Of a stretch of DNA of 64,000 bases, positions 22,125 to 54,416 are shown piece by piece. Positions within the stretch are counted from its first letter, which is position 1; each line of letters begins with the position of its first letter. The position numbers were made by a program, and so were the translations under genes. The notes under the pieces were generated by a model that worked only from the letters and a program-made list of their open reading frames with translations, did no database searches and was not told the origin of the DNA. The stretch lies in assembly GCA_030280995.1 (NCBI GenBank), contig JASXTE010000017.1, positions 26,702,998 to 26,766,997 of the forward strand, given 5' to 3'. The stretch comes from Hemileia vastatrix (Eukaryota; Basidiomycota; Pucciniomycetes; Pucciniales; Zaghouaniaceae).

Positions 22125-22194
22125 AGGAACTTGCTAGTTCTTTGGAATCTCTGTTTGCTTTGGTTGGCTCTTTTTGGTGTTTTGGACTGGAAGA

Positions 22195-24504
22195 ATGGCT
22201 TCTGGTTCTGCTATTCCTGTGGTGACTGTCAGTGGGGGGGATGGTCCTCCTTCTGTGATGGTTAGGGAGTGTGTGAGAATTAAAACTTGGGATGGTACCA
22301 AGTTTAATGGGGAGGATGTCAAGTGGTTTCTAGAGAAGTATGAAACTGCTGCTGGAGTGGATGGTGCTTCCTACCTGGACATGGTGAAGCAGATTATCTT
22401 CTTCATTGGTGATAGGTCAGTGGAGAAGGAGATTGTGGCCATGTCTGGCTACAAGAAGAGGGATTGGAAATTGTTGTGTAGGGAAATGGTGGATAGATGG
22501 GGTGTCAGGTTCACCATGGTGGATCTGAACAAGGTTGTCAGTGAATGGCAATCTTATGGTGGTGTTGGTAACTTACATAGTTACAGGAAGTTTCTGCTAA
22601 AGTTTGATCCTGTGGTGGAATACTTGGTGGAAGTGGAGGAGCTGGCACATGAAAATGCTGCCAAAGATGTTTTTTGGTCTGACCTGGCTAGAGATGTCAG
22701 GATGGATGTGTTGAAGGAGTTGTCAAGAAAGGAATTGATAAAGACTCTTTCTAATGGGGATCAGAAGTTGCCTGCCTTGGATAAGGTGAAGGAGGCTGTT
22801 GAGGCCCATTTGAAGTTATTGGCTGTGGACACCTATCAGGAGGGGTGTGCCAAGTATGTCAGAAAAGTCAGTGAGGCTTTGGCTGAAGAGGAAGTTAGGG
22901 AGAAGAAGGAGGAGAAGAATTTGGTGCAGGTTCCCAAACAGGAGAGGGACCCAATGGTGGAGAAGTTGGCTGATCTGACAAAACAGCTGCACATTTTTGT
23001 CCAGGAGGCCAAGAAGGTTAATAAGGCACCTTCTCAGCCTAGAGAGTTTGAAAGGAGGGCTGGTAGGAGTGATCCTTGGGTTTGCTCTTATTGCAGTAGG
23101 AGGGGGCACAGGTCCAATGATTGTTGGGCACTGAAAAGAGATGTGTCTGAAGGAAAAGTGGAGTTTGATGGCAGGGTTTTTAAGTTCCCTGACGGTTCTT
23201 TTGTGAAGCTCAGTGAGGGGCAGGCTCCTGTTGATTTGGTCAGGAGAAGGGGTGGTCTCAATCAAAGGAGGCCAAGGTCTGAGGAGATTCCTGATCAGGG
23301 GAAGTCTTCTGTTAAGGTAGATGAGGACGTCAAGGGAAAGGGGAAGGAGGTCAATAAGGTCTCTTTTTCTACTTCCTTTGGTGGTTTGGAATTGTATTCT
23401 TGTGGTGGACAGTCAAGTGGTGAATGCTTGGCTGGTGTTTATGATGTGGAAGCAGGGAAGGTGGGTAGGCCTAAGAGCAGTTCTCAGGCCCAACCAAAGC
23501 CAAATGCTTCAAAGGGTGATCCTAAGCTGAGTGCAGCTAGGAAAAGGTACAGCAAAGAGGAGCTGTACAAGATGCAGAAAGGTATGGCTGACATGGGCCC
23601 CCCTAGTTTTGGTGCACTGGACCTGAATGGTGAGCCAATGCCAATGGAGGTGGATTCTGACTCCGAGGAGGATGTCCCTTTGGCTTCATTGCCAAAGCCT
23701 GTTGGAGTCAGAGGTTCTGGTGAGGGATCTGGTTTGGTTCCTGTTAATGGTAAATCTGTTGGTGGTGCTGGTCCTCAAGAATCTTCTAGGACCAAGGTGG
23801 TGAAGCAAAGAGCTCACTTTGAGAGGCCAGTAGTGTCTGGTCAAGTTAATGTTATGGACTCTGTCCTGGAAAGGATGAACCAGGGTCAGGTTTCCCTATC
23901 TTATGGGGAATTGTATGCTATCAGTCCAGGGTTGGCTGATAGGCAGAAGAAGTTGTTGACCAGGAGAAGGGTTTCTTCTGGTGAGGTAGAATACATTTGT
24001 GATTCTGCTGAAAAGTTTGGTGAGGGGTTGGAAACTCATTTTTCTGCTCCTCTGGGATATGTCAATGTCACTCTGAATGGCAGGGAGGCAAGGGCATTGG
24101 TGAATTCAGGTTCTCAGATAAACCTGATTTCTTTGTTTGAGGCCACTCATATGGGCCTCCCCATCAAAACTGGTATTGGTGGGAATTTGAGAGGGATCAG
24201 TGGCCATGTCACTGAATTTGTTGGAACTTCAGAGTTTGTGAAGTTAGATGTTGGAGGAGCCTCAGGGAAGGCTCATTTTTACATTGCTAAAGGTAATGTA
24301 AAAGCAGTTTTGGGTGGGCCATTCTTGATGGATTTTCAGGCAAGAATTGGTTATCAATTTGATTTGGGAATCAGTTTGGAGTTGACCGGTGAAGACGAAA
24401 GGAGGCTTCACATGAGGTTGTCATCCCCTGGAGAGGATGGTTGGGAGACTAGGCCTGGTTTATCTTCAATGTGCCAGTGCATGGACTGCTGCAGGAGAAG
24501 GTAG
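22195..24504 (+). CDS. Element B Gag with zinc knuckle and protease-like domain
   Basis: ATG 22195 (MASGSAIPVV) is preferred over the upstream ATG 22174 because element A gag starts similarly (MSSTSG...). The N-terminal 210 residues are capsid-like (WFLEKYETAAGVD, DMVKQIIFFI). A CCHC knuckle CSYCSRRGHRSNDC is near residue 297. A linker rich in K, E and S follows. Near residue 630-720 is a retropepsin-like fold with ALVNSGSQINLIS and VLGGPFLMDF. The expected catalytic Asp of D(S/T)G is Asn (AAT, 24103-24105), so the protease is probably inactive. The ORF is otherwise intact, and its codon use is GC-richer than elements C and D. Confidence 0.85.
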   Translation: MASGSAIPVVTVSGGDGPPSVMVRECVRIKTWDGTKFNGEDVKWFLEKYETAAGVDGASYLDMVKQIIFFIGDRSVEKEIVAMSGYKKRDWKLLCREMVDRWGVRFTMVDLNKVVSEWQSYGGVGNLHSYRKFLLKFDPVVEYLVEVEELAHENAAKDVFWSDLARDVRMDVLKELSRKELIKTLSNGDQKLPALDKVKEAVEAHLKLLAVDTYQEGCAKYVRKVSEALAEEEVREKKEEKNLVQVPKQERDPMVEKLADLTKQLHIFVQEAKKVNKAPSQPREFERRAGRSDPWVCSYCSRRGHRSNDCWALKRDVSEGKVEFDGRVFKFPDGSFVKLSEGQAPVDLVRRRGGLNQRRPRSEEIPDQGKSSVKVDEDVKGKGKEVNKVSFSTSFGGLELYSCGGQSSGECLAGVYDVEAGKVGRPKSSSQAQPKPNASKGDPKLSAARKRYSKEELYKMQKGMADMGPPSFGALDLNGEPMPMEVDSDSEEDVPLASLPKPVGVRGSGEGSGLVPVNGKSVGGAGPQESSRTKVVKQRAHFERPVVSGQVNVMDSVLERMNQGQVSLSYGELYAISPGLADRQKKLLTRRRVSSGEVEYICDSAEKFGEGLETHFSAPLGYVNVTLNGREARALVNSGSQINLISLFEATHMGLPIKTGIGGNLRGISGHVTEFVGTSEFVKLDVGGASGKAHFYIAKGNVKAVLGGPFLMDFQARIGYQFDLGISLELTGEDERRLHMRLSSPGEDGWETRPGLSSMCQCMDCCRRR

Positions 24505-24961: not shown

Positions 24962-25198
24962 GACAGAAGAAAACTCAAGAAAAGAAGATAAAAATTTCAA
25001 GATAATTCAAGAAAATCAAGAAAAAAAATCTGAAGATAATGAAGAAAGAAGATGCAAAATATTTTTGTGAAGATTGTCAAGATCTATTTTTGGACCTCCA
25101 GCATGAGGATAAACTGCACAATTTTAGAAGATTTGATTCAGAAGATGAATCAAGATTTGAAGATTTGGAAGTTGGAAGTGAGGATGAAGATGTGGAAT

Positions 25199-25343: not shown

Positions 25344-28300
25344 GTCTGGTGGTGAAGATTTCCTGAAGATCCCTCAAGTTGAAGGTGGAGCGCCAAAGTA
25401 TAAGAAGGTAGCGCAGAAGATTAGGCCTGTCAATGAGCCTATGCCTGTGGGCTTGAATCCGCCTTTGAAGAGACCTCCTTTGTCAAGAGATCCGTACTGT
25501 ACTCCTTTGGTGAAGAATCCTCCAGAATTTGTAGAGACGGCTAGGGTGACCGTGGAAAGGTTGAAGGTTGTTAATTTTAGTCCTGAAGGGTGGTTGTCTG
25601 AAGAAGAAAAGAAGTTGTTGTTGCACGTTATTGTGCTAAGGGAATAGGCTGTGGTGTTTGTTGAGGAGGAAAGGGGTGTATTGAAGCACTCTTATGGGGA
25701 ACCTTACTTGATTCTGGTGGTTTGTGATGAACCTTGGTAAATAAAACCTATTCCGATTCCAGCTGCTATAAGAGAGGATTTTGTGGAGATTGTTAGGGAA
25801 AGAGTCAGGACTGGGTTATACGAACAATCGACATCCAGCTACTCAAGTCCGGTTTTCTGTGTAAAGAAGCAGAATGGGAAGTTGAGGGTGGTTCATGATC
25901 TTAGAGCCTTGAATAGAGTCACCATCAAGGACACTGGTATACCACCAAGTGCAGAGGATTTTGTTGAAGCTCTTGCTGGAAGGGTGTGTTATGGTTTGGG
26001 TGATATTATGGGTGGTTATGATGAAAGGGAACTCCATACGGATTCAAGGCCTCTCACAACTTTTGAGACTCCTTTGGGAAGAATTCAGCTCACTAGGTTG
26101 CCTCAGGGAGCAACTAATTCAGTGGTGGTATATCAAGCACAGATGGCTTGGATTTTACAGGATGAGGTTCCTACTCATGCTGGTATTTTTATTGATGATG
26201 GTGGAATTGAAGGACCATCCACTGATTACGGTAATGAGGTGTTAGCGGAGAACCCTGGCATAAGGAGGTTTGTGTGGGAATATGCAATAACTCTAGAGAG
26301 AGTGTTGTTTAGGATTGAAGAGGCTGGTTTGACCATTTCGGGGTCAAAATTCTGTTGTTGTGTTCCTGCTTTGGAAATTCTGGGTCATGTGGTATGTAAA
26401 GAGGGAATGATTATGGCAAAGAAGAAGATTAATAAAATTCAGTCATGGCCAAGGCCTAAAAATACTACTGAAGTCTAGGGATTTTTGGGTGTATGTATAT
26501 ATGTCAGGATTTTTATTAAGGATTTTTCATTGTTGGATTCACCTTTAAGGAGGTTGACCAAAAAAGATTCAGATTGGGAATGGACTGAAGAGTGTGAAGA
26601 GGCTTTTCAGAAGTTGAAAAAGGTTGTTGGTGAAGATATGGTTCTTCACAAGTTGGATTATGGTGTTGGTGCTGGAAAAATTTATCTGGCAGTGGACTCA
26701 AGTTATATTGCTGCTGGTGTTGTTTTTTCTCAGGAAGATAAAACTGGGAGGGTCAGGCCAGTAAGATATGAGTCTGTGGTGTTTAATGAGGTGGAATCTA
26801 GGTATTCTCAACCTAAGTTGGAATTGTGTGGTCTAGCTAAAAGTTTAAAGAAGCTGCAGAAGGTTTTGTGGGGGTAGCATTTTGAGCTGGAGGTGGATGC
26901 AAAATATTTGGTTCAGATGATCAATACGCCTAGTCTTCCAAATGCTCCAATGACTAGGTGGGTGGCATTTATTCAACTTTTTTTCTTTTGACCTGGTACA
27001 CAAACCAGGAAAAACTTTTACTATTCCTGATGGATTATCAAGGAGGCCACCTACAGATGAAGATTCTGAGGCTGAAGAGTTTGATGAAGATGTTCCAGTG
27101 GTTAGGGCCAGCACAAAGGGTGCTGAAGATTTTTCTGACCTCCCCCAAGAGGCTAAACTGGCTGGATCTGATCTTGATTCTGGTTATCGGGATGTTTTTG
27201 TTGATGAAGATGGAGTTGTTGTTTGGGACAGCTCAAATTTGGTAAAGGGTGTTTTTGTTAGTGAACTGGATTCTCACAAGGTTCAGTGGAAAGAGATGGA
27301 CGTGCCAAAATTTAAGGATTGGTGTCCTGGTTGCGCTTCTCAATTGGCTCATGTTCATACTGGTGATTTTGATGACAGAATTGTGTCCTTAGACGTTGTT
27401 TTGTTGGATTTTGAAGATGAGACCTGGGGTCAGTCTGGGTTTTATTTTATTTTGGTGGAATATCTGTTGACCTTGGAGAGGCCAGACAGTTGTGATGATG
27501 ATACTTGGTTGGAAATCAAGAAGAAGAGCCCTGGATTTTATGTGTCAGGAAGGCGGTTGATGAGGAGGAGACATCCTAATCCTCAAGTGGTGGTGACTCA
27601 GAAGAATGGTCAAGAATTGGTTTTGAAGTCTTTGCATGAAGACCTTGGTCATGGAGGTTTTGGGGAGACTTATAGAAGAGTAGCAGACAGATTTTGGTGG
27701 CCAGGTATGAAGTTGGCTGTGCAGGGTTGGGTTCAATCTTGTGAAGAATGTCAAAGAAGAAGTCACTTGAAACCTAAAGAAGTTGGCCGTGATACTGGCG
27801 AATCAACTTTTTTGGATGGGTCAGTCTGGATGCTGTCCATATTAAAGAGGGCAGGTATAAATACTTGATTGTTGCTAGGGATGATTTATCTGGTTGGGTT
27901 GAGGCAGTGCCTCTGGTTAATTTGACTTCCAAGAATGTGGCAGAGTTTTTGAAGAAGGAGTGGATTTATAGGTATGGGTTGATGAAGTTGGTGACTGTTG
28001 ATGGTGGTCCAGAGTTTGGTGCCAAATTTAAAGAAGCTGTGGCTAGTGTTGGTTCTAAAGTTAGAGTGGCTACACCTTATTATCCTGAAGCTGAAGGCAT
28101 GGTTGAAAGAGGCCATCAAGTTATTAAGAACGCTTTGGTGTAGATGTGCGGAGATTGTGCTGAAAAGTGGAGGCATTATTTACCCTTGGTGTTATTTTCT
28201 GATAGGGTCACTGTGAAGAGGACAACTGGCTATTCTCCTTATGAGTTAATGTTTGGACAGAAAGCCGTTCTACCAGTGGACTTGGAAGCTGTCTCTTATC

Positions 28301-28786
28301 TTGGAATTGATTGGGATGATGTGCACTCAACAGAAGAATTGCTCTGTGCCAGGATGCAACAGTTGGAATTTAGAGAGGAATGTCAAGAGAAGGAATACTC
28401 TAGAATTATGAAGATTAGGAATCAATCAGTCAGATACTGGGACAAGAAGTTGGCTCATAAACTTACAAATCCCTTGAAACCTGGTTGTTTGGTTTTGGTG
28501 TATAATAGAAGTTTGGAGAGTCAGTGGGGAAAAATGTTTGCTGACAGATGGAATGGACCTTACAGAGTCAGATCTCAGGTGTCTGGAGGTTCTTATGTTT
28601 TGGAAGAGTTGGATGGTGCAGTCTTGAAAAAGAGAGTGGCTGCAGACCAGGTGAAGAGGTTTTATCCCAGAGGCACTAGGCATGCAGAAGATTGACTCCA
28701 CAATGAGGATAAACTATGGAATGTTATTTTTGTTTTAGAATTTTTTTGGTGTTGCAGAGAAACTTTTGTGTTGGAAACTTTTTGTT

Positions 28787-28876: not shown

Positions 28877-29046
28877 GATTGTCTGTTTCAACCCTTTCTC
28901 TTAATTTGGTAGAACCCTAGTACTGGTTTTTTTCACAGGTTTTAGTCCTCTATGACTTTAAACTGGAATTTCCTCTGGTTTTCATGTGCTGGTCTCTTCA
29001 CTCTTATTGGTTTTGGTTTTTTTGTGTTGGATGTTGTGTTTTTTTT

Positions 29047-29135: not shown

Positions 29136-29273
29136 GAATGTCTGTCTCAAGTCTTTTGTTTTTCCTAATTGAATTCTAGTTCTGTTGTTTATTATTCAGG
29201 TTTCAAGTCCACTATGACTCTAAACTGGTTTGGGACTGGCTTCTTTATCTTTGGTTTTTCTGGGTTGGTGGTG

Positions 29274-31532: not shown

Positions 31533-31909
31533 GATCTGTGGTGAGAAAAGATGATGGAAAGGGATACGATGAGATTTTTGTCAGTGATGGGTAGATGATG
31601 AAGTGAAGGTGGAAGTTCAGCAGTTTGGCTGTAGAGGTGTTCTGTATGAAATTGGCTGCGTCTATTTTATGCAAAATTCCGTCAGTCCATCAAGACTTTA
31701 AACTAAAATCTGGTTTCTGTCAGTCCTCCAAGACTTTAAACTGGCTGGTTTCAATATTTTTTATCAAGACTAGTCCGTCAAGACTTTAAACTGAACACTG
31801 TGTTAGTCCCCCAAGACTTTAAACTGAGGAATGTTGTTGGTTCAGTCCCCCAAGACTATAAACTGAGGAATGGGTTTTTTGTTGTTGGAGTTGTTTTTGA
31901 AAGATTGGT

Positions 31910-31999: not shown

Positions 32000-32164
32000 G
32001 AATGTTAGTTTTTTCTCTGTGTCTTAATGTGGTTGATCTCTGGTTCTGGGTTTATGATTTAGGTTTTTGAGTCCCCCAAGACTTTAAACTGAGGGTTTTT
32101 GAGTCCCCCAAGACTATAAAATGAGGATGGTCCCCCAAGACTTAAAACTGAGGGTTGTTGGTGG

Positions 32165-32899: not shown

Positions 32900-33990
32900 T
32901 TTGGTCTTCCAACATTGGCAGGGGCCTTTGTTGCGTGATTTGGCGCTGTTTGTGCATGTCTTAATTGACATCTGTTAAGGAATTGGGTATTTTTCTGGTT
33001 TTATTCGGTGGATATTGGGTCTGCCGATATGTGGGTAATATCATTGGATAGCCCCATGTTTTATCTATATTTTATGTCTTGTAGACATTTTTCATATTCT
33101 AAGTTTTAAGGGGTCATTTCCTCATTTTTCATTTATAAAAGATAGCTGTTTAATTTTTTTTTGTGTTATACAGGCTAAACTTAAGTCTTAGGGTTAAGTG
33201 CTTAGTACCATTGGATAGAGCTAATTTTTCTCTATATTTCATGTCACAATGTTGTTATAGTGAAATTCCGTGTTTTAAAGGTTTTAGTAGTTGTAGCTAA
33301 TTTTTCTAAGTAGATTAGTTGTTTTTATTGGTGTTATGGCTTCAGGGAGGCCGGGCTGCTTTGGGCGGCACCTCTGACGTTGGGCGGCCCGCCCGCCTCT
33401 GTTTTAGGAGGTTGGGGAGCGCTTCAGGAGGGTTTTTTATTCGATTTGGTGGGTACAGGTGCCAGATTTTTGGGTGCGCATGGGCTCTTAGATAGTGGTC
33501 TGTGTGTACATAGTGAATAAGACAGTTTGGGGCAACCTTAATTATCATACAACCATCCGGAGGTGATATCATTGTTCCTCACTCAGTTTTCACTGTTTTC
33601 TGGCCACAATTTGGCTGTGTTTGTTGCAAGTGAGTTCTTCATTTTACTTAACTTTGGCAACTGTTTCTCTGTTATAGTCTTGCAAGCTATAGCAAGTATT
33701 ATTGCTGTCTCTGGTGTGGATTTTCAGCCTACATCAAGTATCTTTGCTTTCTGTGGTGTGGACATTGTTCTACATTTCATTTCTTTGGTCTGGTAGTCTA
33801 TCTGGGGACTACTTTCTTAACTCATCAAGCAGTCAAGTGTGTTGAAAAGGGGCTTTAGCAAAACAGGAACCAACTTACTTTAGCAAGTAAATCTCACTCT
33901 ATTTTTCTAAAGGGACAGGGGATTTTCTCTCTGGTTTTTCTCCAACTCCCTTGGTCAAGGCCTATAGCTAGTACTATAGGATTCTCTACA
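32900..33990 (+). repeat. Element B 3' LTR
   Basis: 1091 bp, preceded by the purine tract TTGGAGGGAGGA. It starts TTTGGTCTTCC and ends TTCTCTACA. It has more differences from the 5' LTR than the LTR pairs of A or D do, so B is an older insertion. Confidence 0.93.
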
Positions 33991-42924: not shown

Positions 42925-43423
42925 TATGGTCTTCCAACATTGGCAGGGGCCTTTGTTGTGTGATTTGGCGCGGTTTGTGCATGTCTTAATTGACATCTGT
43001 TAAATAATTGGGTATTTTTCTGGTTTTATTACGTGGATATTGGGTCTGCCCGTATGTGGGTACTATCATTGGATAGCCCTGGTTTTTCTCTATATTTTAT
43101 GTCTTGTAGACATTTTTCATATTCTGAGTTTTAAGGGGTCATTTCCTCATTTTTCATTTATAAAAGATTACTGTTTAATTTTGTTTTTTGTGTTTTACAG
43201 GCTAACCTTAAGTCTTAGGGTTAAGTGCTTAGTACCATTGGATAGAGCTAATTTTTCTCTATATTTCATGTCACAATGTTGTTATAGTGAAATTCCGTGT
43301 TTTAAAGGTTTTAGTAGTTGTAGCTAATTTTTCTAAGTAGATTAGTGGTTTTTATTGGTTTTCTGGCTTCAGGGAGGCCGGGCCGCTTCAGGCGGCATCT
43401 CCGACGTCGGGCGGCCCGCCCGC

Positions 43424-44559
43424 TATGGTAAGGTAAACTCTTACAGTCGCCTTGCTGTAAGCAGAATCCGGAGGAGATATATGGATTTAGCTGAAAACCC
43501 CGTCCTTCCAATAAAAATAACAAAGTAGGTGTTCTAAATCACTAAGCTAACCAATCTACTTAGATCTGATTGATAAAAATAATGAAACTCTAAAATAATT
43601 AACGCTTATTGAGATTAAATGATCGTGGCTGTTGATAAAGAAATACTGATAACAACAATTAAGGTGTACCAGTGAAAGATCTGAAAAGATTGACTTTTAG
43701 GTTTTTATAATAATTTGAATTTTTATGAGACAGCAATAATCAAGTCACAGGGACGAAGACCTTTCTAAAGATACCCTGTATGAAGTGTTATTTAAACTGT
43801 TGAATTGTATTTCTAAGATGTTATGTAAAAAAAATAATAATGTTATAAGGGTATTACAAGTTATTTTAATTTGTTGAGTAATAAAAAATGAGACTGTGGT
43901 GGTCAATGATTAAGCTGTATGATGTGTCCCCCCCTCTCAATTTCGAGTTTGAGAAGCGCTTAAGTATTCCTAGTCACGTGCCTAAGTTTTCCCCTCCAGA
44001 GCTCTTCCAGAGTCAATCCGGAGCCCGTACGGAGTCCGTACGGAGCCGGAACGGAGTCCGTACGGAGTCGAAACGGAGTCCGTCCGGACTTCCGGACTCA
44101 ATTTAGAACCTTAAAACCATAATAAAAAATCTAGAAAAATTACACATAATAGAGCTACTTCCCCTTTACCTACCAAACTAATTTTAGTATTCTGCGCAGC
44201 TCTAATTACCCCGTGAAAATTCATCAAAGTTAAGTAATTTTTGAAACGTAAATATTTCTATAAAACTTTAAAATTCATTTAAAAATTTAAGAAAAATAGT
44301 AAAAATTCTGGGAAAATTTCCCAAGGTTCTTGAGTGACTTGACTTGATACTTATAAATTTTTTAGACCATAAAAATAAGTTTTCTCCACAAAATAAATTG
44401 TATTTGTGTAGGCATTTGCTCGTGACCAATTTCTTCTTATTTTAAACTCCAATAAATTAAATAAAACCCTTTTATATAAAAAATAATAACACCAATCTTG
44501 CACGCCGTAATAACTCCATTTACATATTTAGGTGCCGTACTAAACTTTAGGCTACCACA
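43424..44559 (-). repeat. Element A 3' LTR
   Basis: 1136 bp; in element sense it runs TGTGGTAGCC...TTACCATA. It contains a CpG-rich array of TCCGTACGGAG-type units (44010-44095), one unit fewer than the 5' LTR. Confidence 0.95.
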
Positions 44560-44571: not shown

Positions 44572-45230
44572 TCGAGAATGTCCCCATTCTTAAAACTTTG
44601 CATAAGTGGTTGAACAATTCCAAAAGAATTATCTTTTCTAATAAAATAATTTGATAAATTTGTTTTAGCTGGTCTTCTTTTAAATCTTTATAATAAAAAA
44701 GTTCTTTCTTCTTCTCTGGCTTGATATAACATAAAATAATATAAATATAAATCTTGTGATGATTCCACTACTGAGAGCAAGGTTTGAATCCCTTCAGACT
44801 CCCATATACCAGTCTTCCTTCTTGTCACAGCATTGAGAGAGTGGATCTTCCTATGAGCCGAATACTCCTGATTCCAACCTCATAGGGCCCCCCACTGAGC
44901 CGAATTCTATGATTCCAATCTCGCCATAAGGTCCTCCAAGCTTCACACCAAAAAAAAATGGCCTAACTATGAGGCACTAAAAAAAATCATTCCCTAAAAT
45001 CCAACTACCATCCTAACTTCTGATTCCTTCATCACAATTTTCAAACTTTGCTATACAGCAAACCCATAAAATACTTTTGCCAGGCTTCCAATAATAATTT
45101 TAACTTTAGACCATGTTAAAGCGCCACAAATTTCACCTAATTAACCATTATGCTTTCTTTAGCATCATCACCACCTAAAGTTTTAACCTCCTAAAGCTTT
45201 CAGCACCCAATTCCAGAAATAATTGAATAA
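44572..45230 (-). other. Element A distal 3' region without ORF
   Basis: AT-rich sequence with no convincing ORF on either strand. It corresponds in place to the second antisense ORF of element B, but nothing similar is recognisable. Confidence 0.5.
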
Positions 45231-46139
45231 CCAGTTTAGAGTCTTAGTGGACAGTGATAAATTAAAAGATTGAATTGAGTTATCCAAACAAGATTGACAT
45301 TCCAGTTTAAAGTCTTGGTGGACCAAACATATAATCGATTTCCAGTTTATGGTCTTGGTGGACCAAAGATCGTTTAAGTGCATAAATATCTTGATATATT
45401 CCTAAGTAAGGCCTAGGCTTGACCAAAGATTGAATAAATTTGATAATCCAGTTTAATGTCATAGTGGACCAAACATTTGATCGACAATTAATCCAGTATA
45501 AGGCCATAGTGGTCCAATGAATGTTGAATTATCCTGCAGATATTAATTTTCCAGTTTAAAGTCATAGTGGACTAAACAATGAATGAACTACCAGTTTAAA
45601 GTCATGGTGAACCAAACATTTAATCGATAAGAAATCCAGTTTAAGGTCATGGTGGACCCAACAGCTTGATAACAGTCCAGTTTAAGGTCTTGGTGGACCT
45701 AACATTTAATTGATAAAAATAAAAAAATCCGTCTCCCATAAATATCCATAAAATCTTGAACATTCTTGAAATTCAGTTTAAAGTCTTGAAGGACTAATAG
45801 CTCCAATATAAAATCTTTAATGACAGTCTTGAAAATTAGCCAGTTTAAAGTCTTGGAGGACTAACAGCTCCAAAATTCGTATAAAAAAAAACCTTAAAGA
45901 ACGTCTTGAACAGTAGCCAGTTTAAAGTCTTGGAGGACTAACAGCTCTAAAATTCGTATAAAAAACCTTAAAGAACGTCTTGAACAGTAGCCAGTTTAAA
46001 GTCTTGGAGGACTAACAGATGTCTTGAAGTAAAATCCCATAGGTATTGAGTTTCCCTAGACCCTGTTTCCTGTCTAAACTATATGAATAAACTAAAAAGA
46101 ATAGTGACTGAAAAATAAATCTTAGAAATATAATAATAA

Positions 46140-46291
46140 TTTTGATTTAATTAATTAATTTTAATTTTAATTTTTTTTATTTTTTTATTATTTTTATTAT
46201 TTTTTTTTATTTTATTATTTTATTTTATTTTTATTTTATTTTTATTATTTATTTAATTTTTATTTTATTTTTATTATTATTATTATTATTA

Positions 46292-46324
<33 letters not shown>

Positions 46325-46430
46325 AAATAAAAGATTTTAGAAAAGATAGTTTTGAAATAAAAGTTAAAATTTAATTTTAAAGAAAGATAAATGAATGTAA
46401 AAAAAAAGATAAAAAAGTACTAAAAAAATT
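46140..46430. other. AT-rich low-complexity tract in element A
   Basis: TTTTATTTTATT and ATT repeats with a T run of about 25 (46293-46318). Its place matches the AT-rich tract of element B (29780-29960). Confidence 0.8.
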
Positions 46431-46437
46431 TTTAAAA

Positions 46438-46507
46438 GATGCCCCCCGGCCATTTGATGAGCCGTACCCTCGACATCATACCCACATCCAAGTGCAACTT
46501 GATGTGG
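46438..46507 (-). repeat. Hairpin module 3 (element A)
   Basis: Complementary arms CCACATC (46482-46488) and GATGTGG (46501-46507), then GACATC (46472-46477) with GATGCC (46438-46443, one wobble). It corresponds to 29507 and 29703 in element B. Confidence 0.75.
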
Positions 46508-46578
46508 TTACACAATTTTAAGAAATTGAAAAGAAAAGAAAATAAATGAAAGTTTTTAGCAGATAATTTTTTTTTATA

Positions 46579-46647
46579 ATGATGATCACTGGGTGGGCTC
46601 CCTCCAATTTATAAAAATGATTATAGACCACCAGTGAGCATCACCTT
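46579..46647 (-). repeat. Hairpin module 4 (element A)
   Basis: GATGATCACTGGGTGGGCTC (46581 on) faces GACCACCAGTGAGCATC (46627 on), enclosing the conserved CCCTCCAA. It is the same module as 29274-29336 in element B. Confidence 0.7.
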
Positions 46648-46856
46648 TACATTAATTCATAATATATATTTAAAGAAAAGAAATCACAATCTAACATAAA
46701 AAAATCAAAAACAAAATAAAAAAAATCTTGAATCCGGCGTTGAGAGCGGTGTCTCTTGATTCGTTCCAGTTTATAGTCTTAGTGGACTTCCTATAATTAA
46801 AAGACAAAGCCAGGATTCAACTAGAAACAGGGAAAATTTTGGAAACAAACATTATG

Positions 46857-46942
46857 GGGTAATTGTGTATAGAGCAGCCAGCCCATCAATTACCCCCACA
46901 CTTGCCAATATTAAATTAAGAAGGTTCCCCTGTGAACACTTC
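46857..46942 (-). repeat. Hairpin module 1 (element A)
   Basis: GGGGTAATTG (46857-46866) pairs perfectly with CAATTACCCC (46887-46896) around AGAGCAGCCAGCCC. The neighbouring stem is GAAG (46920) with CTTC (46939). It matches the three copies in element B. Confidence 0.8.
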
Positions 46943-47351
46943 TTCCAATAAATTTTAAAATTTTTCCAACACTATCTTCACCCATATTTTAAGAATTTTT
47001 AATTTTGAAAATTTTCAATGAAGGTTTTCTTGCATTTCGTTATGTTTCATCACAGTTTCGTCCCCCATATGCAGTGTAATGATAGTAAAGTATTTTTTTT
47101 TGATAAAAATAAGAAGATAGTTTATACTCGTTGCGGAGGAATCCATAAAATTTGGTAGATATCATAGTTTATCCTCGTTGCGGAGGTATAAAATTTGATA
47201 AATGTCATTAAAATTGTAGTTTATCCTCATTTCAGAGTTATCCGTAAAATTTCATCAATATCATAGTTTATCCTCATTTCGGAGTTGATAAAATTTAAGA
47301 AATTTCATAGTTTATCCTCATTGCGGAGGAATCCATAAAGTTTCATTGATA

Positions 47352-50300
47352 TCATAGTTTATCCTCATTTCGGAGGTAGACTTCGGCACTCCTGGTGCCT
47401 CTAGGATAGAACCGTTTCACTTGATTGGCCGCTACCCTCTTCTTCAATACTACTCCATCCAACTCTTCTAGCACATATGAACCGCCAGAAACTTGCTCCT
47501 TGATTTTATACGGTCCATTCCACCTATCTGCAAACATTTTTCCCCACTGACTTTCCAAACTCCTATTATACACCAGGACCATATCTCCTGGGTTCAAAGG
47601 TTTCCTTAATCGATGTGCCAACCGCTCATCCCAATATCTAACTGATTGATTTCGGATCTTCATCATCCGCGAATATGCCTTTTCTAAATATTCTTCTTTC
47701 TTTTCTAGCTGCATCATTCTTGCACACAATAATTCTTCAGTAGTTTTGACCGTGTCCCAGTCAACTCCAAGATATGATTCAGCTTCTAAATCAACCGGTA
47801 AAACTTCTTTCTGTCCAAAAACAAGTTCATAAGGTGAAAATCTGGTCGTCCTTTTGGCAGTGATTCGATCAGCAAATAAAACTAAAGGTAAATAGTGCCT
47901 CCATTTTTCGGCACTTGTCCCACACATTTTAACTAAAGCATCCTTGATAACTTGATGCCCTCTTTCAACCATGCCTTCAGCTTCAGGATAATATGGGGTT
48001 GCTACCCTAACCTTTGATCCAACTTTCAATACGGCCTCTTTAAACTCTGTCCCAAATTCAGGACCTCCATCTACCGTCACCAACTTCATCACTCCATATT
48101 GATACACCCAATTATTCAAAAAAAATTCTGCCACATTTTTGGCAGTTAAATTAATAAGAGGCGCTGCCTCTACCCAACCAGATAAATCATCTCTGGCCAC
48201 AATTAAATATTTATACCGTCCCTCTTTTATATGAACGGCATCTAAACTAACTCTCCCAAAGAGTGTATATTCAGTGGTTGTGTGTCCAGGTTCTTTTGGC
48301 CTTAAATAACTTCGTCTTTGACATTCTTCGCATGACTGAACCCACTGTTTAACAGCCATCTTCATGCCAGGCCACCAAAATTGATCAGAAATTCTTCTAA
48401 ACGTTTCTCCAACGCCTCTATGCCCGAGATCTTCATGCAGTGATTTCAAAACTAATTCTTGCCCCTTCTGTTGAGTTATAACTACTTGAGGATTTGGATA
48501 CCTCCTCCTCATTAAACGTCGACCAGATAGGTAAAACGTAGATGACTTCCTCTTGATAGCCACCCATTCATCGTCTTCACAATCTTCTGGCCTCTCTAAA
48601 GTCAACAAATATTTGACTAACAAAAAATAAAAACCAGTCTGACCCCAGACTTCATCTTGAAAATCGATTAATATAACATCAATAGGGACTTCTCTATCAC
48701 CAATATCACCTGCACATGAATGAGCCAATAATCGTTGACCCCTAAATAAATCTTTAATCGAGCTATGTCGACGTTGTTCTTCTGAACCTTTGGATCCTTC
48801 AAAAACCGTATTTGAAAATACCTCTTTCTCTTTATCCTCCTTTTTATTTAAGTTCTCTAATTCTCCAACATATACACCATTCCTTAATTTACTACTATCC
48901 CACACTACCAATCCATCTTCCTCTACATACACCACATCTTCTTCTACCTCCTCTCTGCCGAATTTATCTACACCTTTTCCAACACCTTTATTAACATAAA
49001 AACTATTTTCCAGTTTATCCTCTTGGTGGAGGTCATCATCATCATAATCTAAACACAATAGTCCTGCCAGTTTAACCTCATGGGGGAGGTACGGAAAGTC
49101 TTCAGCTCCTTTAGTGCTGGCTTTGATAATAGGTATATCTTCATCGAACTCTTCTGAGTCTGAATCTTCTTCAGTGGGTGGTCTCCTTGATAAACCATCT
49201 GGCATAGTAAAAGTCTTGCCAGGCTTATGAACTAAATCAAATGAAAAATGTTGAATAAAAGCTACCCATCTCGTCATGGGTGCGTTTGGTAAACTTGGGG
49301 AATTAATCATCTGGATTAACGATTTCGCATCCACTTGCAACTCAAAATGTTGCCCCCACAAAATATGCTGAAGTTTCTTCAGTATTTTCGCCACACCACA
49401 TAATTCCAATTTTGGTTGAGAATATCTTGATTTGACCTCAGTAAATACTACAGATTCATACCTAACTGGCCTGATGTAACCAGCTTTATCCGTCTGAGAC
49501 AAAACCGCCCCAGCTGCAACCTGACTTGAATCAACTGCTAAATAAATTCTACCAGCATCTTTTCCATAATCTAACTTGTGCAGGACTAAATCCTTCCCCA
49601 CAACCTCCTTCAACTTCACAAACGCCTTCTCACACTCTTCACCCCACTCCCAGTCTGCATCCTTTCTCGTTAACCGTCTCAATGGAGCTGCCAATGAAGA
49701 AAAGTCCTTGATAAACATTCTAACATATACGCAAACGCCTAAAAACCCTCTAACTTTGGTCGTATTCTTGGGTCTTGGCCAGGACTGAATTTTGTTAACT
49801 TTCTTCTTGGACATAATCCTACCCTCTCTACATACCACATGGCCTAATATTTCTAAGGCTGGCACACAACATGAAAATTTTGAACCTGAAATAGTTAAAC
49901 CAGCCTCTTCAATTTGAAACAAGATTCTTTCTAAAGTAATTGCAAACTCCCAAATGAATTTGCGTATCCCGGGATTCTCTTCCAACACCTGGTTATCATA
50001 GTCGGTTGTTGGTCCCTTAATTCCTCCATCATCTATAAAGATTCCAGCATATTGTGGAATTTCATCTTGAAGGATCCAAGCCATCTGAGCTTGATAAACT
50101 GCAACCGAATTTGTTGCTCCTTGAGGTAATCTTGTTAACTGTAAACGTCCTAGTGGCGTATCGAATGTAGTGAGTGGCCTTGAGTCCGGATGTAACTCTC
50201 TCTCATCATATCCACCCATAATATCTCCCAAACCGTAACACACTCTCCCTGCAAACGCTTCAACAAACTCCTCAGCACTAGGCGGTATCCCAGCATCCTT

Positions 50301-51506
50301 TATTGTAACCCTATTTAAGTCCCTAAGATCATGAACAACTCTAAGCTTGCCATTCGGTTTCTTGATACAAAATACAGGACTAGAATAACTTGACGTTGAT
50401 TGCTCATACAGTCCAGTGCGTATCCGTTCTCTGACAACTTCGATATAAGCTTCTTTTAATGCAGCTGGAATAGGAATCGGTTTCTGCTGCCACGGTTCAT
50501 GACATACCACAGGAATCTTGTAAGGCTCCCCATAGGAATGCTTCAACGCACCCCTCTCCTCTTCTACAAAAGCAATGGCCTTCTCTCGCTTGACCATCAC
50601 ATCCAACAACAACTTCTTCTCTTCACCAGACAACCAACCATCAGGTCCAAAATTAACAACACCCAGTCTCTCAAAAGTGATTCTTGACGTCTCAGAAAAT
50701 TCAGGCGGATTCTTTACCAAGGGACTTTCATAAGGATCTCTTGATAACCTTGGTAATCTCAAAGGTGGATTTAATTCAGCAGGTAGCGGTTCATTAATAG
50801 GTCGAACTTTATTTGCTACTTTCTTATATTTGGCTGCGTCCACATCTAAATTAACTTGAGGTAAAACATCGCCGTTAAAACTTTCATCAAATGAATCTTC
50901 TTCATCATCAGAATCGGAATAAGAAAAATTAGAAAAATATTTTATTTCATTTTTAAATTTTATGCTTTTCTCCTTTCCCTCGTCTAATTTATAAACAGAT
51001 TTTCCAACACCTTTTCTTCCCTTATCCAACATTAAATCACCTGTAAAGAAAGTCGGCAGTTTAACCTCTTGCTGGAGGACTGGAATTGAATTTTCACAAA
51101 AATTATTTTTTTGTGTTTTAATTATACTGAGATTTTTTATCGGATTTTGATGTGATATTCGCAGTTTACCCTCTTGCTGGAGGTCCATAATAGAAGGAGA
51201 TACTTGCAGTTTAACCTCTTGCTGGAGGCCACAAAACATACCCTTCCAATTTTTATCCAACCTAATTTGGCCCATTTTGCCTTTTTCACCATTTTTAAAT
51301 TTAATAGAAAAACCGGGTAAATCCAATAAACATATAGAAAAGTCCATAACATATTTGCACTCCAAAGTAATATTAACAGAAAATAATTGAGAATCCACTT
51401 GAATTATCTCCAAGTGAGCTGACCTATTGCAATCCGGGATCTCATCCTGAGGAGAGATTACAACATTAGAGTGATCAGCCCCTGCTACCCCAAAAAATGA
51501 GGGCAT
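47352..51506 (-). CDS. Element A Pol: RT, RNase H, integrase (intact)
   Basis: 1384 residues, starting MPSFFGVAGADHSN at ATG 51506. The N-terminal 250 residues are acidic, with three LQQEVKL-type repeats (residues about 92-150) coded by the stem-loop repeat, and show no protease motif. RT spans about 345-560 with GIFIDDGG near 487-490. RNase H starts near LAVDSS (654). The integrase HHCC site is about 1022-1065 (HEDLGH, CEECQRRS). The DDE core has VSLDAVHI (about 1088), VDGGPEFG (about 1142) and EAEGMVERGHQ (about 1178). It ends RNEDKL, over a stem-loop repeat, with no chromodomain. It is 146 bases downstream of gag. Confidence 0.93.
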   Translation of the reverse strand: MPSFFGVAGADHSNVVISPQDEIPDCNRSAHLEIIQVDSQLFSVNITLECKYVMDFSICLLDLPGFSIKFKNGEKGKMGQIRLDKNWKGMFCGLQQEVKLQVSPSIMDLQQEGKLRISHQNPIKNLSIIKTQKNNFCENSIPVLQQEVKLPTFFTGDLMLDKGRKGVGKSVYKLDEGKEKSIKFKNEIKYFSNFSYSDSDDEEDSFDESFNGDVLPQVNLDVDAAKYKKVANKVRPINEPLPAELNPPLRLPRLSRDPYESPLVKNPPEFSETSRITFERLGVVNFGPDGWLSGEEKKLLLDVMVKREKAIAFVEEERGALKHSYGEPYKIPVVCHEPWQQKPIPIPAALKEAYIEVVRERIRTGLYEQSTSSYSSPVFCIKKPNGKLRVVHDLRDLNRVTIKDAGIPPSAEEFVEAFAGRVCYGLGDIMGGYDERELHPDSRPLTTFDTPLGRLQLTRLPQGATNSVAVYQAQMAWILQDEIPQYAGIFIDDGGIKGPTTDYDNQVLEENPGIRKFIWEFAITLERILFQIEEAGLTISGSKFSCCVPALEILGHVVCREGRIMSKKKVNKIQSWPRPKNTTKVRGFLGVCVYVRMFIKDFSSLAAPLRRLTRKDADWEWGEECEKAFVKLKEVVGKDLVLHKLDYGKDAGRIYLAVDSSQVAAGAVLSQTDKAGYIRPVRYESVVFTEVKSRYSQPKLELCGVAKILKKLQHILWGQHFELQVDAKSLIQMINSPSLPNAPMTRWVAFIQHFSFDLVHKPGKTFTMPDGLSRRPPTEEDSDSEEFDEDIPIIKASTKGAEDFPYLPHEVKLAGLLCLDYDDDDLHQEDKLENSFYVNKGVGKGVDKFGREEVEEDVVYVEEDGLVVWDSSKLRNGVYVGELENLNKKEDKEKEVFSNTVFEGSKGSEEQRRHSSIKDLFRGQRLLAHSCAGDIGDREVPIDVILIDFQDEVWGQTGFYFLLVKYLLTLERPEDCEDDEWVAIKRKSSTFYLSGRRLMRRRYPNPQVVITQQKGQELVLKSLHEDLGHRGVGETFRRISDQFWWPGMKMAVKQWVQSCEECQRRSYLRPKEPGHTTTEYTLFGRVSLDAVHIKEGRYKYLIVARDDLSGWVEAAPLINLTAKNVAEFFLNNWVYQYGVMKLVTVDGGPEFGTEFKEAVLKVGSKVRVATPYYPEAEGMVERGHQVIKDALVKMCGTSAEKWRHYLPLVLFADRITAKRTTRFSPYELVFGQKEVLPVDLEAESYLGVDWDTVKTTEELLCARMMQLEKKEEYLEKAYSRMMKIRNQSVRYWDERLAHRLRKPLNPGDMVLVYNRSLESQWGKMFADRWNGPYKIKEQVSGGSYVLEELDGVVLKKRVAANQVKRFYPRGTRSAEVYLRNEDKL

Positions 51507-51652
51507 TCATAATAATTTGAATCCTGAATAAATTGAAGACATAACGATAAAAGAAAATTTCAGCCGAGTTTAGGTAGTTTATCCTCATTTCGGAGGAATT
51601 AAATTCTTGATATCCCCTGGAGATAATCCATAATTTTGCCCCAAGGGCTTAT

Positions 51653-52780
51653 TCACCGATTCCATAAAACCCAAAAATAAACCCCCATAATTTGTCCTGC
51701 CATTGGACATAAAAAATAAACAACCCTTTTCCAAAACATGAGTGCATCCAATTTATGCACTCTATTAACAAATGCCACTACACTCTTTATTAGTGCAGGG
51801 AAAACCATATCCTCCTTAATAATCTCTCCCTGAGATTGTAACAAATCCACCATATCCATATCTTCATTGCAGACAGTCTCTGCTTCTGAAGACAAAACCT
51901 GAGGCAAAAAATCCTCTAAATCCGATTTCAAATCATTCAACAAAAAATTATCCCCATCATCCAAAATTTTGTCATTAATGACAACAATATCTTCATCTTC
52001 AAAAATCTCTTCTTTCCAAACAGAAGAGTCAACAAAAATAATATCTTCAGGCTGGACAAAATCTTCAGGAATGGCTGAATCCGGAATTTCATCAGTAACT
52101 AGTTCTTTTACACCATCCTCTTCTATCTCTTGAGCGACCTCGGTGTCTTCTCCAGAGTCCAAATCAACAGAGTTATGAGTATCCAGATGTTCCAAAATAA
52201 CCTTCTTTAGCACCTCCATACCAGGAATCCTAGTTTCTCCATCTGGAAGATCCTTCATTAAATTTGCTTTAATAAGCACCATCAAAACATCTTTCTTAAC
52301 CTTTTCCCCCATAGCATCCCAAAAAACATACTTTGATGCATTATCATGAAATAAAATTTCATACTCCAACAAATAATCCAGAACCACCTGAAATTCAACC
52401 ACAAACTGATGATACTGATGCAGAGATGTTACACCACCTTTTGATTGCCATTTCCTAGCTATATCCTTTAGATCCTCAAATGAATAAACTTTTGGCCACC
52501 TTTTTTCCATTTCCATCTTGAGCTTTCTCCAATCTTGACCTTTATAACCATCCATAGAAATAACCTCCTTTTCCACCTCTCTGTCCAAAATAAAGAACCT
52601 AATCTGCTTCACCATATCCAAAGGTAAGGCACCATCAATCGCAGCTGCAGTTTCATACCTATGTAAAAATCCTTCTAAATCATCTCCAGAAAACTTGGGC
52701 CCAATCAAAGATACAATCCTTACTGATGCCCTAAAAGGTACACCAGCAGCCAACACAGCAGTTCCACTAGTAGAAGACAT
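51653..52780 (-). CDS. Element A Gag (no zinc knuckle, no protease)
   Basis: About 375 residues from MSSTSGTAVL (ATG 52780; an upstream ATG at 52807 adds nine hydrophobic residues and is less likely by comparison with B). The capsid-like half matches element B gag (FLHRYETAAAIDG, DMVKQIRFFI, GQDWRKLKMEMEKRWP). The second half is acidic (D/E-rich), unlike the basic knuckle-containing B linker, and ends with a hydrophobic tail. It probably forms particles, but nucleic-acid-binding and protease functions would have to come from elsewhere. Confidence 0.8.
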   Translation of the reverse strand: MSSTSGTAVLAAGVPFRASVRIVSLIGPKFSGDDLEGFLHRYETAAAIDGALPLDMVKQIRFFILDREVEKEVISMDGYKGQDWRKLKMEMEKRWPKVYSFEDLKDIARKWQSKGGVTSLHQYHQFVVEFQVVLDYLLEYEILFHDNASKYVFWDAMGEKVKKDVLMVLIKANLMKDLPDGETRIPGMEVLKKVILEHLDTHNSVDLDSGEDTEVAQEIEEDGVKELVTDEIPDSAIPEDFVQPEDIIFVDSSVWKEEIFEDEDIVVINDKILDDGDNFLLNDLKSDLEDFLPQVLSSEAETVCNEDMDMVDLLQSQGEIIKEDMVFPALIKSVVAFVNRVHKLDALMFWKRVVYFLCPMAGQIMGVYFWVLWNR

Positions 52781-52936
52781 CCCAAAACATAAGAAAAGCG
52801 TTAACAACCGTTAAAATAACAAGCCTCTTGCAGGCCAATAACAAAAATCCAATTAGAGTTCCAGAAAATAAGCCTCTTGCAGGCTAATAACGTTCTTGAT
52901 CCAACTAAGTCTTTAAAGAAAGCTAGAGAAATCGAA

Positions 52937-52954
52937 CCCCCACGTTGGGCGCCA
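52937..52954 (-). other. Primer binding site of element A
   Basis: In element sense TGGCGCCCAACGTGGGG, two bases after the 5' LTR end. It is the same as in element B except one base. Confidence 0.85.
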
Positions 52955-52956
52955 AC

Positions 52957-54103
52957 TATGGTAAGGTAAACTCTTACAGTCGCCTTGCTGTAAGCAGAAT
53001 CCGGAGGAGATATATGGATTTAGCTGAAAACCCCGTCCTTCCAATAAAAATAACAAAGTAGGTGTTCTAAATCACTAAGCTAACCAATCTACTTAGATCT
53101 GATTGATAAAAATAATGAAACTCTAAAATAATTAACGCTTATTGAGATTAAATGATCATGGCTGTTGATAAAGAAATACTGATAACAACAATTAAGGTGT
53201 ACCAGTGAAAGATCTGAAAAGATTGACTTTTATGTTTTTATAATAATTTGAATTTTTATGAGACAGCAATAATCAAGTCACAGGGACGAAGACCTTTCTA
53301 AAGATACCCTGTATGAAGTGTTATTTAAACTGTTGAATTGTATTTCTAAGATGTTATGTAAAAAAAAATAATAATGTTATAAGGGTATTACAAGTTATTT
53401 TAATTTGTTGAGTAATAAAAAATGAGACTGTGGTGGTCAATGATTAAGCTGTATGATGTGTCCCCCCTCTCAATTTCGAGTTTGAGAAGCGCTTAAGTAT
53501 TCCTAGTCACGTGCCTAAGTTTTCCCCTCCAGAGCTCTTCCAGAGTCAATCCGGAGCCCGTACGGAGTCCGTACGGAGCCGGAACGGAGTCCGTACGGAG
53601 TCCGTACGGAGTCGAAAGGGAGTCCTTCCGGACTTCCGGACTCAATTTAGAACCTTAAAACCATAATAAAAAATCTAGAAAAATTACACAGAATAGAGCT
53701 ACTTCCCCTTTACCTACCAAACTAATTTTCGTAGTCTGCGCAGCTCTAATTACCCCGTGAAAATTCATCAAAGTTAAGTAATTTTTGAAACGTAAATATT
53801 TCTATAAAACTTTAAAATTCATTTAAAAATTTAAGAAAAATAGTAAAAATTCTGGGAAAATTTCCCAAGGTTCTTGAGTGACTTGACTTGATACTTATAA
53901 ATTTTTTAGACCATAAAAATAAGTTTTCTCCGCAAAATAAATTGTATTTGTGTAGGCATTCGCTCGTGACCAATTTCTTCTTATTTTAAACTCCAATAAA
54001 TTAAATAAAACCCTTTTATATAAAAAATAATAACGCCAATCTTGCACGCCGTAATAACTCCATTTACATATTTAGGTGCCGTACTAAACTTTAGGCTACC
54101 ACA
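52957..54103 (-). repeat. Element A 5' LTR
   Basis: 1147 bp. It differs from the 3' LTR by about a dozen substitutions and one extra 11-bp TCCGTACGGAG unit (near 53590-53610). Confidence 0.95.
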
Positions 54104-54416
54104 CCGCCTCTGTTTTAGGAGGTTGGGGAGCGCTCCAGGAGGGTTTTTTATGCAATTTGGCGGGTACAGACGCCAGATTGGTGGGTGCGCATGGGCTCTT
54201 AGTTAGTGGTCTGTGTGTACATAGTGAATAAGACAGTTTGGGGCAACCTTAATCATCATAAAACCATCCGGAGGTGATATCATTGTTCCTCACTCAGTTT
54301 TCACTGTTTTCTGGCCACAATTGGCTGTGTTTATTGCAAGTAAGTTCTTCATTTAACTTAACTTTGGCAACTGTTTTCTCTGTTATAGTCTTGCAAGCTA
54401 TAGCAAGTATTATTGC

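What the first reader, a model, noticed from the sequence alone, without database searches (positions are those of the whole stretch)
45233..51597. A short stem-loop with compensatory stem changes recurs about 26 times in element A and 13 times in element B
The unit is a 4-bp stem, a 6-base loop (C....AA or C....AT), the closing stem, then WTAAACTG(G). Stems vary on both arms together: AGTC/GACT (for example 45551, 45840, 28944), GGTC/GACC (45341, 45636, 45678), CCTC/GAGG (51057, 47309, 25095, 27139). Paired changes with a constant 3' tail and loop pattern are hard to explain by simple repeat spread. They suggest selection for a folded RNA (or DNA cruciform) plus a single-stranded TAAACTG tag. 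Possible roles: Gag binding or packaging, RNA localisation, or a small-RNA target. Function is not shown by the sequence.
Basis: partly seen in the sequence, partly recalled or inferred. Interest (0 to 1): 0.92.

Follow-up and report, generated by a model that had tools for sequence, protein, structure and literature searches.

The report
Repeated mini RNA fold in retrotransposons
Two related jumping genes in what looks like a rust-fungus genome carry 39 copies of one tiny folding RNA motif, probably in most copies a small knot rather than a plain hairpin, always on the coding strand; this suggests a many-site docking signal for the element's RNA, but no function is shown.

Summary
In detail: 26 units in element A and 13 in element B, all on the element's sense strand. 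A covariance model finds these 39, then only two matches at E 2.5 and 4.5. Flanks do not align between A and B (core identity 0.71, flanks 0.30/0.29). The 4-bp stem is real: 149 of 156 cells pair, the outer two pairs change on both sides, and a tree-aware null is beaten (p 0.0007-0.0043); no single column pair is family-wise significant.

In 25 of 31 'class 1' units, 19 of 19 in A, loop bases 3-5 can pair with tail bases 7-9, making a minimal H-type pseudoknot. Support is moderate (tree-null p 0.025-0.045 for double changes, 0.26-0.29 for paired cells). Eight 'class 2' units cannot form it.

A and B are Ty3/Gypsy elements with rust-fungus relatives. A lacks a detectable zinc knuckle and protease, yet its LTRs are 97.8% identical, so it was probably moved in trans. 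Best guess: dispersed Gag/particle recognition sites. The host genome could not be searched.

The parts
45231..46013 (-). A, 3' untranslated array: 13 class 1 units, first stem base at 46013, 45939, 45862, 45795, 45699, 45658, 45613, 45573, 45515, 45470, 45364, 45324, 45253 (each runs 23 nt downwards); stems mostly AGTC/GACT and GGTC/GACC
   Evidence: all 13 have the full 3-bp loop-tail pairing
46766..46788 (-). A, class 1 unit, counterpart of B 29206-29228
47117..47376 (-). A, array of 6 class 2 units of about 47-bp period (first bases 47376, 47329, 47285, 47238, 47186, 47139); loop YGNAAY, tail ATAAACTAT or ATAAACTAC; the last base of the first one is the first base of the pol stop codon
49010..49032 (-). 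A, class 1 unit inside the pol frame (LHQEDKL), RNase H-integrase linker
49067..49089 (-). A, class 1 unit inside the pol frame (LPHEVKL); counterpart of B 27139-27161
51056..51078 (-). A, class 1 unit in pol frame (LQQEVKL), loop GCA with tail TGC
51161..51183 (-). A, class 1 unit in pol frame (LQQEGKL), loop GCA with tail TGC
51206..51228 (-). A, class 1 unit in pol frame (LQQEVKL), loop GCA with tail TGC; counterpart by position of B 25095
51574..51596 (-). A, class 2 unit between gag and pol frames
25095..25117 (+). B, class 1 unit, loop GCA with tail TGC
27139..27161 (+). B, class 1 unit in a pol frame
28695..28717 (+). B, class 2 unit at the end of pol
28944..28966 (+). B, class 1 unit
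29206..29228 (+). B, class 1 unit
31684..31866 (+). B, 3' array, 5 class 1 units (31684, 31722, 31772, 31805, 31844); S2 complete in 2 of 5
32070..32151 (+). B, 3' array, 3 class 1 units (32070, 32102, 32129); S2 complete in none
47352..51506 (-). A pol frame, 1384 aa (RT, RNase H, integrase; no protease or chromodomain model matched)
   Evidence: Pfam
51653..52810 (-). A gag-like frame, 385 aa, no CCHC knuckle
22138..24504 (+). B gag-protease frame, 788 aa, with CCHC knuckle and protease-like domain
52950..54103 (-). A 5' LTR (pair 97.8% identical to 43417-44559); PBS-like TGGCGCCCAACGTGGGG follows it
43417..44559 (-). A 3' LTR
21034..22044 (+). B 5' LTR (pair 92.7% identical to 32902-33911)
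32902..33911 (+). B 3' LTR

Best explanation
The unit is a selected RNA fold of the retrotransposon transcript. In most copies it is a minimal H-type pseudoknot: S1 of 4 bp (NNUC/GANN), L1 of 2 nt (CN), S2 of 3 bp between loop bases 3-5 and tail bases 7-9, L2 of 1 nt, L3 of 6 nt (WUAAAC). It is repeated along the internal part of the genomic RNA where sequence is free: the 3' untranslated region, linkers between Pol domains, and the ends of the pol frame. It most likely works as a set of dispersed recognition sites that a protein, most plausibly an autonomous relative's Gag, uses to tell this RNA from host mRNA and to nucleate particle assembly. Shown: 39 units, sense only, stem kept with change on both sides, flanks free. 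Moderately supported: the pseudoknot. Inferred: protein binding, Gag as the protein, packaging. My probabilities: selected RNA structure about 0.85, pseudoknot in class 1 about 0.6, Gag/packaging role about 0.35. The confidence below is for pseudoknot-type RNA sites with a Gag/packaging role.
For: Stem: 149 of 156 cells paired over 39 units, tree-null p 0.0007, 0.0010, 0.0043 on three trees. Unbiased column scan over unit plus 10-nt flanks: the seven highest pairs by corrected mutual information are n2-m3, n2-m4, m3-m4, l4-t8, the flank pair d1-d2, l3-t9, n1-m4. Of 666 possible 3-bp helices in class 1, l3-l5:t7-t9 comes next after the two S1 registers, and first of all in element A, 19 of 19 units. 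l3:t9 in class 1 is C:G 19, G:C 4, U:A 3, C.A 5. Unit 45795 and unit 45862, in an internal duplication 85% identical, differ at two core positions only, exactly l3 (C/U) and t9 (G/A). In the three class 1 A/B counterpart pairs all 6 differences fall on l6 and t1, unpaired in the model. Sense only, 39 of 39. None in elements C and D. A has no CCHC knuckle or protease match but near-identical LTRs, so its RNA was probably packaged by another element's Gag. Published parallels: dispersed packaging signals sharing a motif (PMC6281560, passages); Ty1 Gag prefers RNA with its 5' pseudoknot (PMC8396678, passages).
Against: 8 of 39 units (class 2) cannot form S2, and over all 39 the tail-internal helix t1-3:t7-9 is possible in more units (28) than S2 (25). 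6 of 12 class 1 units in B lack one S2 pair. S2 paired cells do not exceed the tree null (p 0.22-0.29), and the double-change test (p 0.025 and 0.045) was restricted after the fact to class 1. No column pair is family-wise significant. About half of the units belong to tandem or longer duplications. In 123-nt context ViennaRNA (no pseudoknots) gives S1 a mean probability of only 0.31, against 0.26 for the complementary strand. No binding data. Retroviral and Ty1 packaging signals lie near the 5' end (PMC8396678, passages), whereas no unit lies in A's gag frame or its leader. No relative outside this window was shown to have units, so independent conservation is untested.
Confidence: 0.3

Rival explanations
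1. Folded RNA sites recognised by a host protein rather than Gag, acting in export of unspliced RNA, stability, translation or localisation. Same fold, different reader.
For: Densest in the 3' untranslated region (13 of 26 in A at 45231-46013, 8 of 13 in B at 31684-32151), where host regulatory sites often sit. Multi-copy arrangement and sense-only orientation fit equally well.
Against: Units also sit in pol linkers and between gag and pol. Elements C and D in the same window do without them. No reader is known.
Confidence: 0.3
2. A plain hairpin with a sequence-specific single-stranded tail: loop YA and tail TG are conserved because a protein reads them, not because they pair.
For: Class 2 (8 units) has stem and tail but no S2. 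S2 paired cells do not exceed the tree null.
Against: l3 and t9 occur as C:G, G:C and U:A; 45795 against 45862; S2 is the best helix in A.
Confidence: 0.25
3. Neutral or selfish short repeat, spread by template switching and tandem duplication during reverse transcription; paired stems reflect few ancestral types (AGTC, GGTC, CCTC) and not continuing selection.
For: Few independent stem events on the trees. 16 of 39 units in tandem arrays and 3 more in longer duplications.
Against: Stem and tail are held while flanks are lost. Tree-null p for S1 is 0.0007-0.0043. Class 1 counterpart A/B units change only at l6 and t1. All on one strand.
Confidence: 0.1
4. Selection on the peptide: all 6 A units in the pol frame, and the 2 B units in open pol frames, are read in the same phase, giving L..E.KL.
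For: LQQEVKL, LQQEGKL, LQQEVKL, LPHEVKL, LHQEDKL, LRNEDKL in the A pol frame; B phase reckoned from the ORF coordinates.
Against: Twenty of the 26 A units lie outside the pol frame, 19 of them 3' of it. One of the three reading phases is closed by the TAA of the unit. Residues vary where nucleotides are unpaired.
Confidence: 0.03
5. Frameshift-stimulating pseudoknots.
For: Geometry resembles luteovirus-type pseudoknots (sizes recalled; S1-L3 triplex in PMC7618472, passages).
Against: A slippery X XXY YYZ within 18 nt upstream of only 7 of 39 units, none of the units in the pol frame. Most units are untranslated.
Confidence: 0.02

Closest known systems
Dispersed RNA packaging signals of ssRNA viruses and of hepatitis B pregenomic RNA (PMC6281560 passages; PMC7793301, PMC7612645 search listing only)
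   Same: Many short folded sites spread over a genomic RNA, sharing a recognition motif. The MS2 loop motif (x)xYA resembles the NYA of class 1 loops, perhaps by chance.
   Different: Those are stem-loops with reported coat- or core-protein recognition; here most fit a pseudoknot with a near-constant 3' strand, in an LTR retrotransposon, and binding is unknown.
Ty1 5' pseudoknot / Psi (PMC8396678, passages)
   Same: Pseudoknot in an LTR-retrotransposon RNA, preferred by its Gag in vitro.
   Different: Long-range, at the 5' end of a Ty1/Copia element; here up to 26 local 23-nt copies in a Ty3/Gypsy element, none in A's gag frame or leader.
Luteovirus-type minimal H-type pseudoknot, e.g. beet western yellows virus (sizes recalled; triplex from PMC7618472, passages)
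   Same: Very short S1 and S2, 2-nt L1 starting with C, A-rich L3 crossing S1.
   Different: No slippery site before the units in the pol frame; repeated many times; mostly untranslated.
VANDAL anti-silencing motifs bound by VANC (recalled, no call)
   Same: Short motif repeated many times in the free parts of a mobile element.
   Different: VANC sites are double-stranded DNA motifs (recalled); here the stem keeps pairing and one strand is used.

Membership tests
Dispersed viral packaging signals | Several dispersed folded sites with a shared motif in one genomic RNA | tested here: met
   39 units in two elements, 26 in one; the fold itself is inferred from sequence
Dispersed viral packaging signals | Contact with the coat or Gag protein and effect on assembly | not testable with these tools
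   Needs binding and packaging assays
H-type pseudoknot | Loop bases of a hairpin pair with a strand outside it | tested here: inconclusive
   25 of 31 class 1, 19 of 19 in A, 0 of 8 class 2; tree-null p 0.025 and 0.045 for double changes but 0.26-0.29 for paired cells
Frameshift pseudoknot (luteovirus type) | Slippery heptamer a few nt upstream, in frame | tested here: not met
   7 of 39 have such a heptamer within 18 nt, none of the units in the pol frame
Any Rfam family | Match at the family's gathering score | tested here: not met
   0 in 64 kb. At E <= 1 in 45200-47400 two sub-threshold matches, snoR639 E 0.059 (22.4 bits against 42 needed) and leu-phe leader E 0.39 (24.5 against 70)
Ty3/Gypsy LTR retrotransposon (host element A) | RT, RNase H, integrase in this order in one frame, between LTRs, with a PBS | tested here: met
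   integrase core model at 28.5 bits is below Pfam's own cut-off of 32.6, the H2C2 domain well above its own
Autonomous Ty3/Gypsy | Protease and nucleocapsid knuckle in A | tested here: not met
   No CCHC in the three sense frames of 51301-52960; residues 270-930 of P0006 and 238-1061 of P0012 have no match in A; no protease model in the gag or pol frame

The most novel reading that the evidence does not exclude
A Ty3/Gypsy lineage of rust fungi marks its genomic RNA with dozens of dispersed 23-nt mini-pseudoknots that act together as Gag docking/assembly sites: a multi-site packaging code in an LTR retrotransposon, which lets a derivative without zinc knuckle and protease (A) ride in another element's particles.
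Probability: 0.2. Interest if true: 0.85.

Novelty: new variant of a known kind. Interest (0 to 1): 0.6.

Why it matters
How LTR retrotransposon RNA is chosen for packaging is poorly known; for Ty1, Gag affinity measured in vitro only partly explains it (PMC8396678 abstract). A compact, countable, repeated RNA fold in an element that has apparently lost its own nucleocapsid knuckle would make multi-site recognition directly testable outside viruses. Six full-text searches of the held open-access library listed no paper whose title or abstract start describes such units in fungal Gypsy elements; I saw only the listed rows (4 of 4, 6 of 6, 10 of 139, 8 of 5706, 8 of 13, 8 of 43), and subscription journals are mostly not held.

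Tried and rejected
DNA cruciform: does not explain loop-tail pairing, and the stem tolerates G.U (4 cells) and not A.C. Tail-internal hairpin t1-3:t7-9: 28 of 39 units could pair, but it costs energy in all four units evaluated and leans on U.G pairs. Pairing of one unit's loop with another unit's tail (multimer network): own-unit pairing 25 of 31 against 525 of 930 for others, so own pairing is favoured but a network is not excluded.

A peptide motif in relatives: of the 120 listed homologous proteins (of 1043 found), 7 match the in-frame peptide pattern or its alternative frame and 44 match a looser pattern with one substitution. I take these as mostly chance; P0008 and P0012, which are close relatives, have a match that cannot be judged without DNA. 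A protein search from the unit-bearing linker gave 327 candidates, none at E <= 10.

Search for more copies: pattern scans of prokaryote genome contigs (113 stretches, the 80 listed with one match each, taken as chance) and of viral contigs (3 and 12 stretches, one match each). RT-based search of viral contigs: 7 stretches, none a relative. The window's own genome could not be searched.

Results against my reading: no family-wise significant pair under the tree null; S2 paired cells not above the null; class 2; B's 3' array; weak stem in context. No rows were dropped from the 39; class 1 (31) and class 2 (8) were split on l4 after seeing the data.
Full report
Setting. The window (35.5% G+C) is rich in LTR retrotransposons. 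Self-comparison shows element A on the minus strand (LTRs 43417-44559 and 52950-54103, 97.8% identical), element B on the plus strand (LTRs 21034-22044 and 32902-33911, 92.7%), element C (LTRs 4663-5839 and 12338-13510) and element D (LTRs 54417-55551 and 62470-63604). A and B are Ty3/Gypsy elements. A's pol frame matches RT, RNase H, H2C2 and (below Pfam's own cut-off) integrase core models. Its RT region is closest to unnamed metagenome proteins and to Puccinia proteins. By tblastn with a Puccinia striiformis polyprotein, A and B are each about 70% identical over the RT region. The host is therefore probably a rust fungus; the species was not identified.

The units. Scanning both strands gives 39 units: 26 in A (first stem base 51596 down to 45253) and 13 in B (25095 to 32129). 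Writing the unit n1-n4, l1-l6, m1-m4, t1-t9, the consensus is NNTC CNNNAW GANN WTAAACTRN. A covariance model of the 39 finds them at E <= 0.013, then two matches of 10.3 and 9.2 bits at E 2.5 and 4.5. Fifty simulated windows give 4 such sites in total. All units are on the sense strand of their element. Elements C and D hold none, and the repeat families listed in their interiors have 2-3 copies each (20 of 21 shown for D).

How far it is copying. Over all 338 A-B unit pairs the 23-nt core is 71% identical, the 23 nt on either side 30% and 29%, random interior 23-mers 27%. Within an element copying is common: 16 of 39 units lie in tandem arrays (periods 41, 74, 47 and 32) and 3 more in longer internal duplications, leaving 20 outside any listed one. 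Four units have a counterpart in the other element: three lie in or at the edge of A-B alignments, one (51228/25095) is matched by position only. In the three class 1 pairs all six differences are at l6 and t1; the class 2 pair differs at n1, l2, l3.

Stem. S1 pairs in 149 of 156 cells; 32 of 39 units have all four pairs (28 of 31 class 1, 4 of 8 class 2). The outermost pair carries A:U, C:G, G:C and G.U, the second G:C and C:G; at each of them 14 of 34 distinct rows have a change on both sides. Against sequences evolved on three trees of the units with the observed column rates, the S1 count has p 0.0007, 0.0010 and 0.0043. The number of events is small, and in a test of every column pair none is family-wise significant (best 0.06-0.13, for n2-m3). 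So stem selection is well supported as a whole, not pair by pair.

Pseudoknot. Among the seven highest column pairs are l4-t8 and l3-t9, two neighbouring pairs of an antiparallel helix l3-l5:t7-t9; one flank pair, d1-d2, ranks between them. Counting every 3-bp helix in unit plus flanks (666), it is third in class 1 after the two S1 registers and first in element A, where 19 of 19 class 1 units have all three pairs; over all 39 units it is fourth, behind the tail-internal helix. Loops GCA go with tail UGC (4 units), loops UCA with UGA (2 complete, a third with a broken middle pair), loops CCA or CUA with UGG (19). Exceptions in class 1 are six units of the B 3' array (31684, 31805, 31844, 32070, 32102, 32129). 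Unit 45795 and its neighbour 45862 differ only at l3 and t9. Tests with the tree null are mixed: double changes at l3:t9 p 0.025 and 0.045; S2 paired cells p 0.26-0.29 in class 1 and 0.22-0.29 over all units. The class 1 restriction was made after seeing the data. Class 2 (8 units, l4 = A, t8 = A) cannot form S2; 7 of its 8 loops contain a GNRA-type tetranucleotide (GCAA or GAAA) between pyrimidines (read), which might stabilise the stem in another way (inference).

Stability. S1 alone is weak, -1.9 to -4.7 kcal/mol in six units examined, and in 123-nt context its mean probability is 0.31, against 0.26 for the complementary strand. ViennaRNA cannot score the pseudoknot. Either S2 or a bound protein would be needed for a stable fold (inference).

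Position. In A: 13 units in the 3' untranslated region (45231-46013), one at 46788, six class 2 units from the pol stop onward (the first still in frame), two in the RNase H-integrase linker, three near the start of the pol frame ahead of RT, one between gag and pol. None lies in the LTRs. All six in the pol frame share one phase. The coding units thus sit in linkers and at ends of the frame, as expected if the protein tolerates but does not require them.

Function. A lacks a CCHC knuckle and a protease match, while B's gag-protease frame has both. With LTRs 97.8% identical, A moved fairly recently, presumably with proteins of another element (inference). A cis signal that lets foreign Gag pick this RNA is then the economical explanation, and a repeated dispersed fold resembles packaging-signal-mediated assembly described for ssRNA viruses and for hepatitis B pregenomic RNA (PMC6281560, passages read). 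Ty1 Gag's preference for RNA with its pseudoknot (PMC8396678, passages) is a precedent within LTR elements. None of this shows binding; a host reader (export, stability, translation) is nearly as likely. Frameshifting is rejected for lack of slippery sites before the coding units. No Rfam family matches at its cut-off (sub-threshold matches).

Limits. Every count rests on two related elements. The host genome tool did not complete, and no collection at hand gave another copy at DNA level or a relative of the linker at protein level.

Noticed in passing
43417-63896: Nested insertions: A and D both sit inside one B-type LTR; its pieces at 42927-43423, 54104-54420 and 63607-63896 match successive parts of 21034-22103, with four bases overlapping at the A junction as expected of a target-site duplication.
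   Followed up: partly
51507-52810: A carries a gag-like frame without zinc knuckle or protease although its LTRs are 97.8% identical: probably a trans-mobilised deletion derivative.
   Followed up: partly
47117-47376, 51574-51596, 28695-28717: Class 2 units: same stem and UAAACU but loop YGNAAY (28695: CACAAT) and tail ending UAU/UAC; t8 and l4 are both A without forming a pair. Unexplained.
   Followed up: partly
22138-24504: The protease-like domain of B reads NSG where the Puccinia relative P0006 has DSG, and B's pol is split over several frames: B looks decayed.
   Followed up: no
20407-20787: A further gag-like fragment of the same lineage just upstream of the B 5' LTR; the nearest unit is at 25095.
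   Followed up: no
44010-44088 and 53552-53632: Tandem 11-bp repeat CGGAGTCCGTA inside both A LTRs.
   Followed up: no
55588-57402: Element D integrase frame ends in a chromodomain (Pfam PF00385, E 1e-7): a chromovirus-type element without units.
   Followed up: no
35889-36614: Tandem repeats of about 94 and 173 bp near a D-like fragment at 38012-40881.
   Followed up: no
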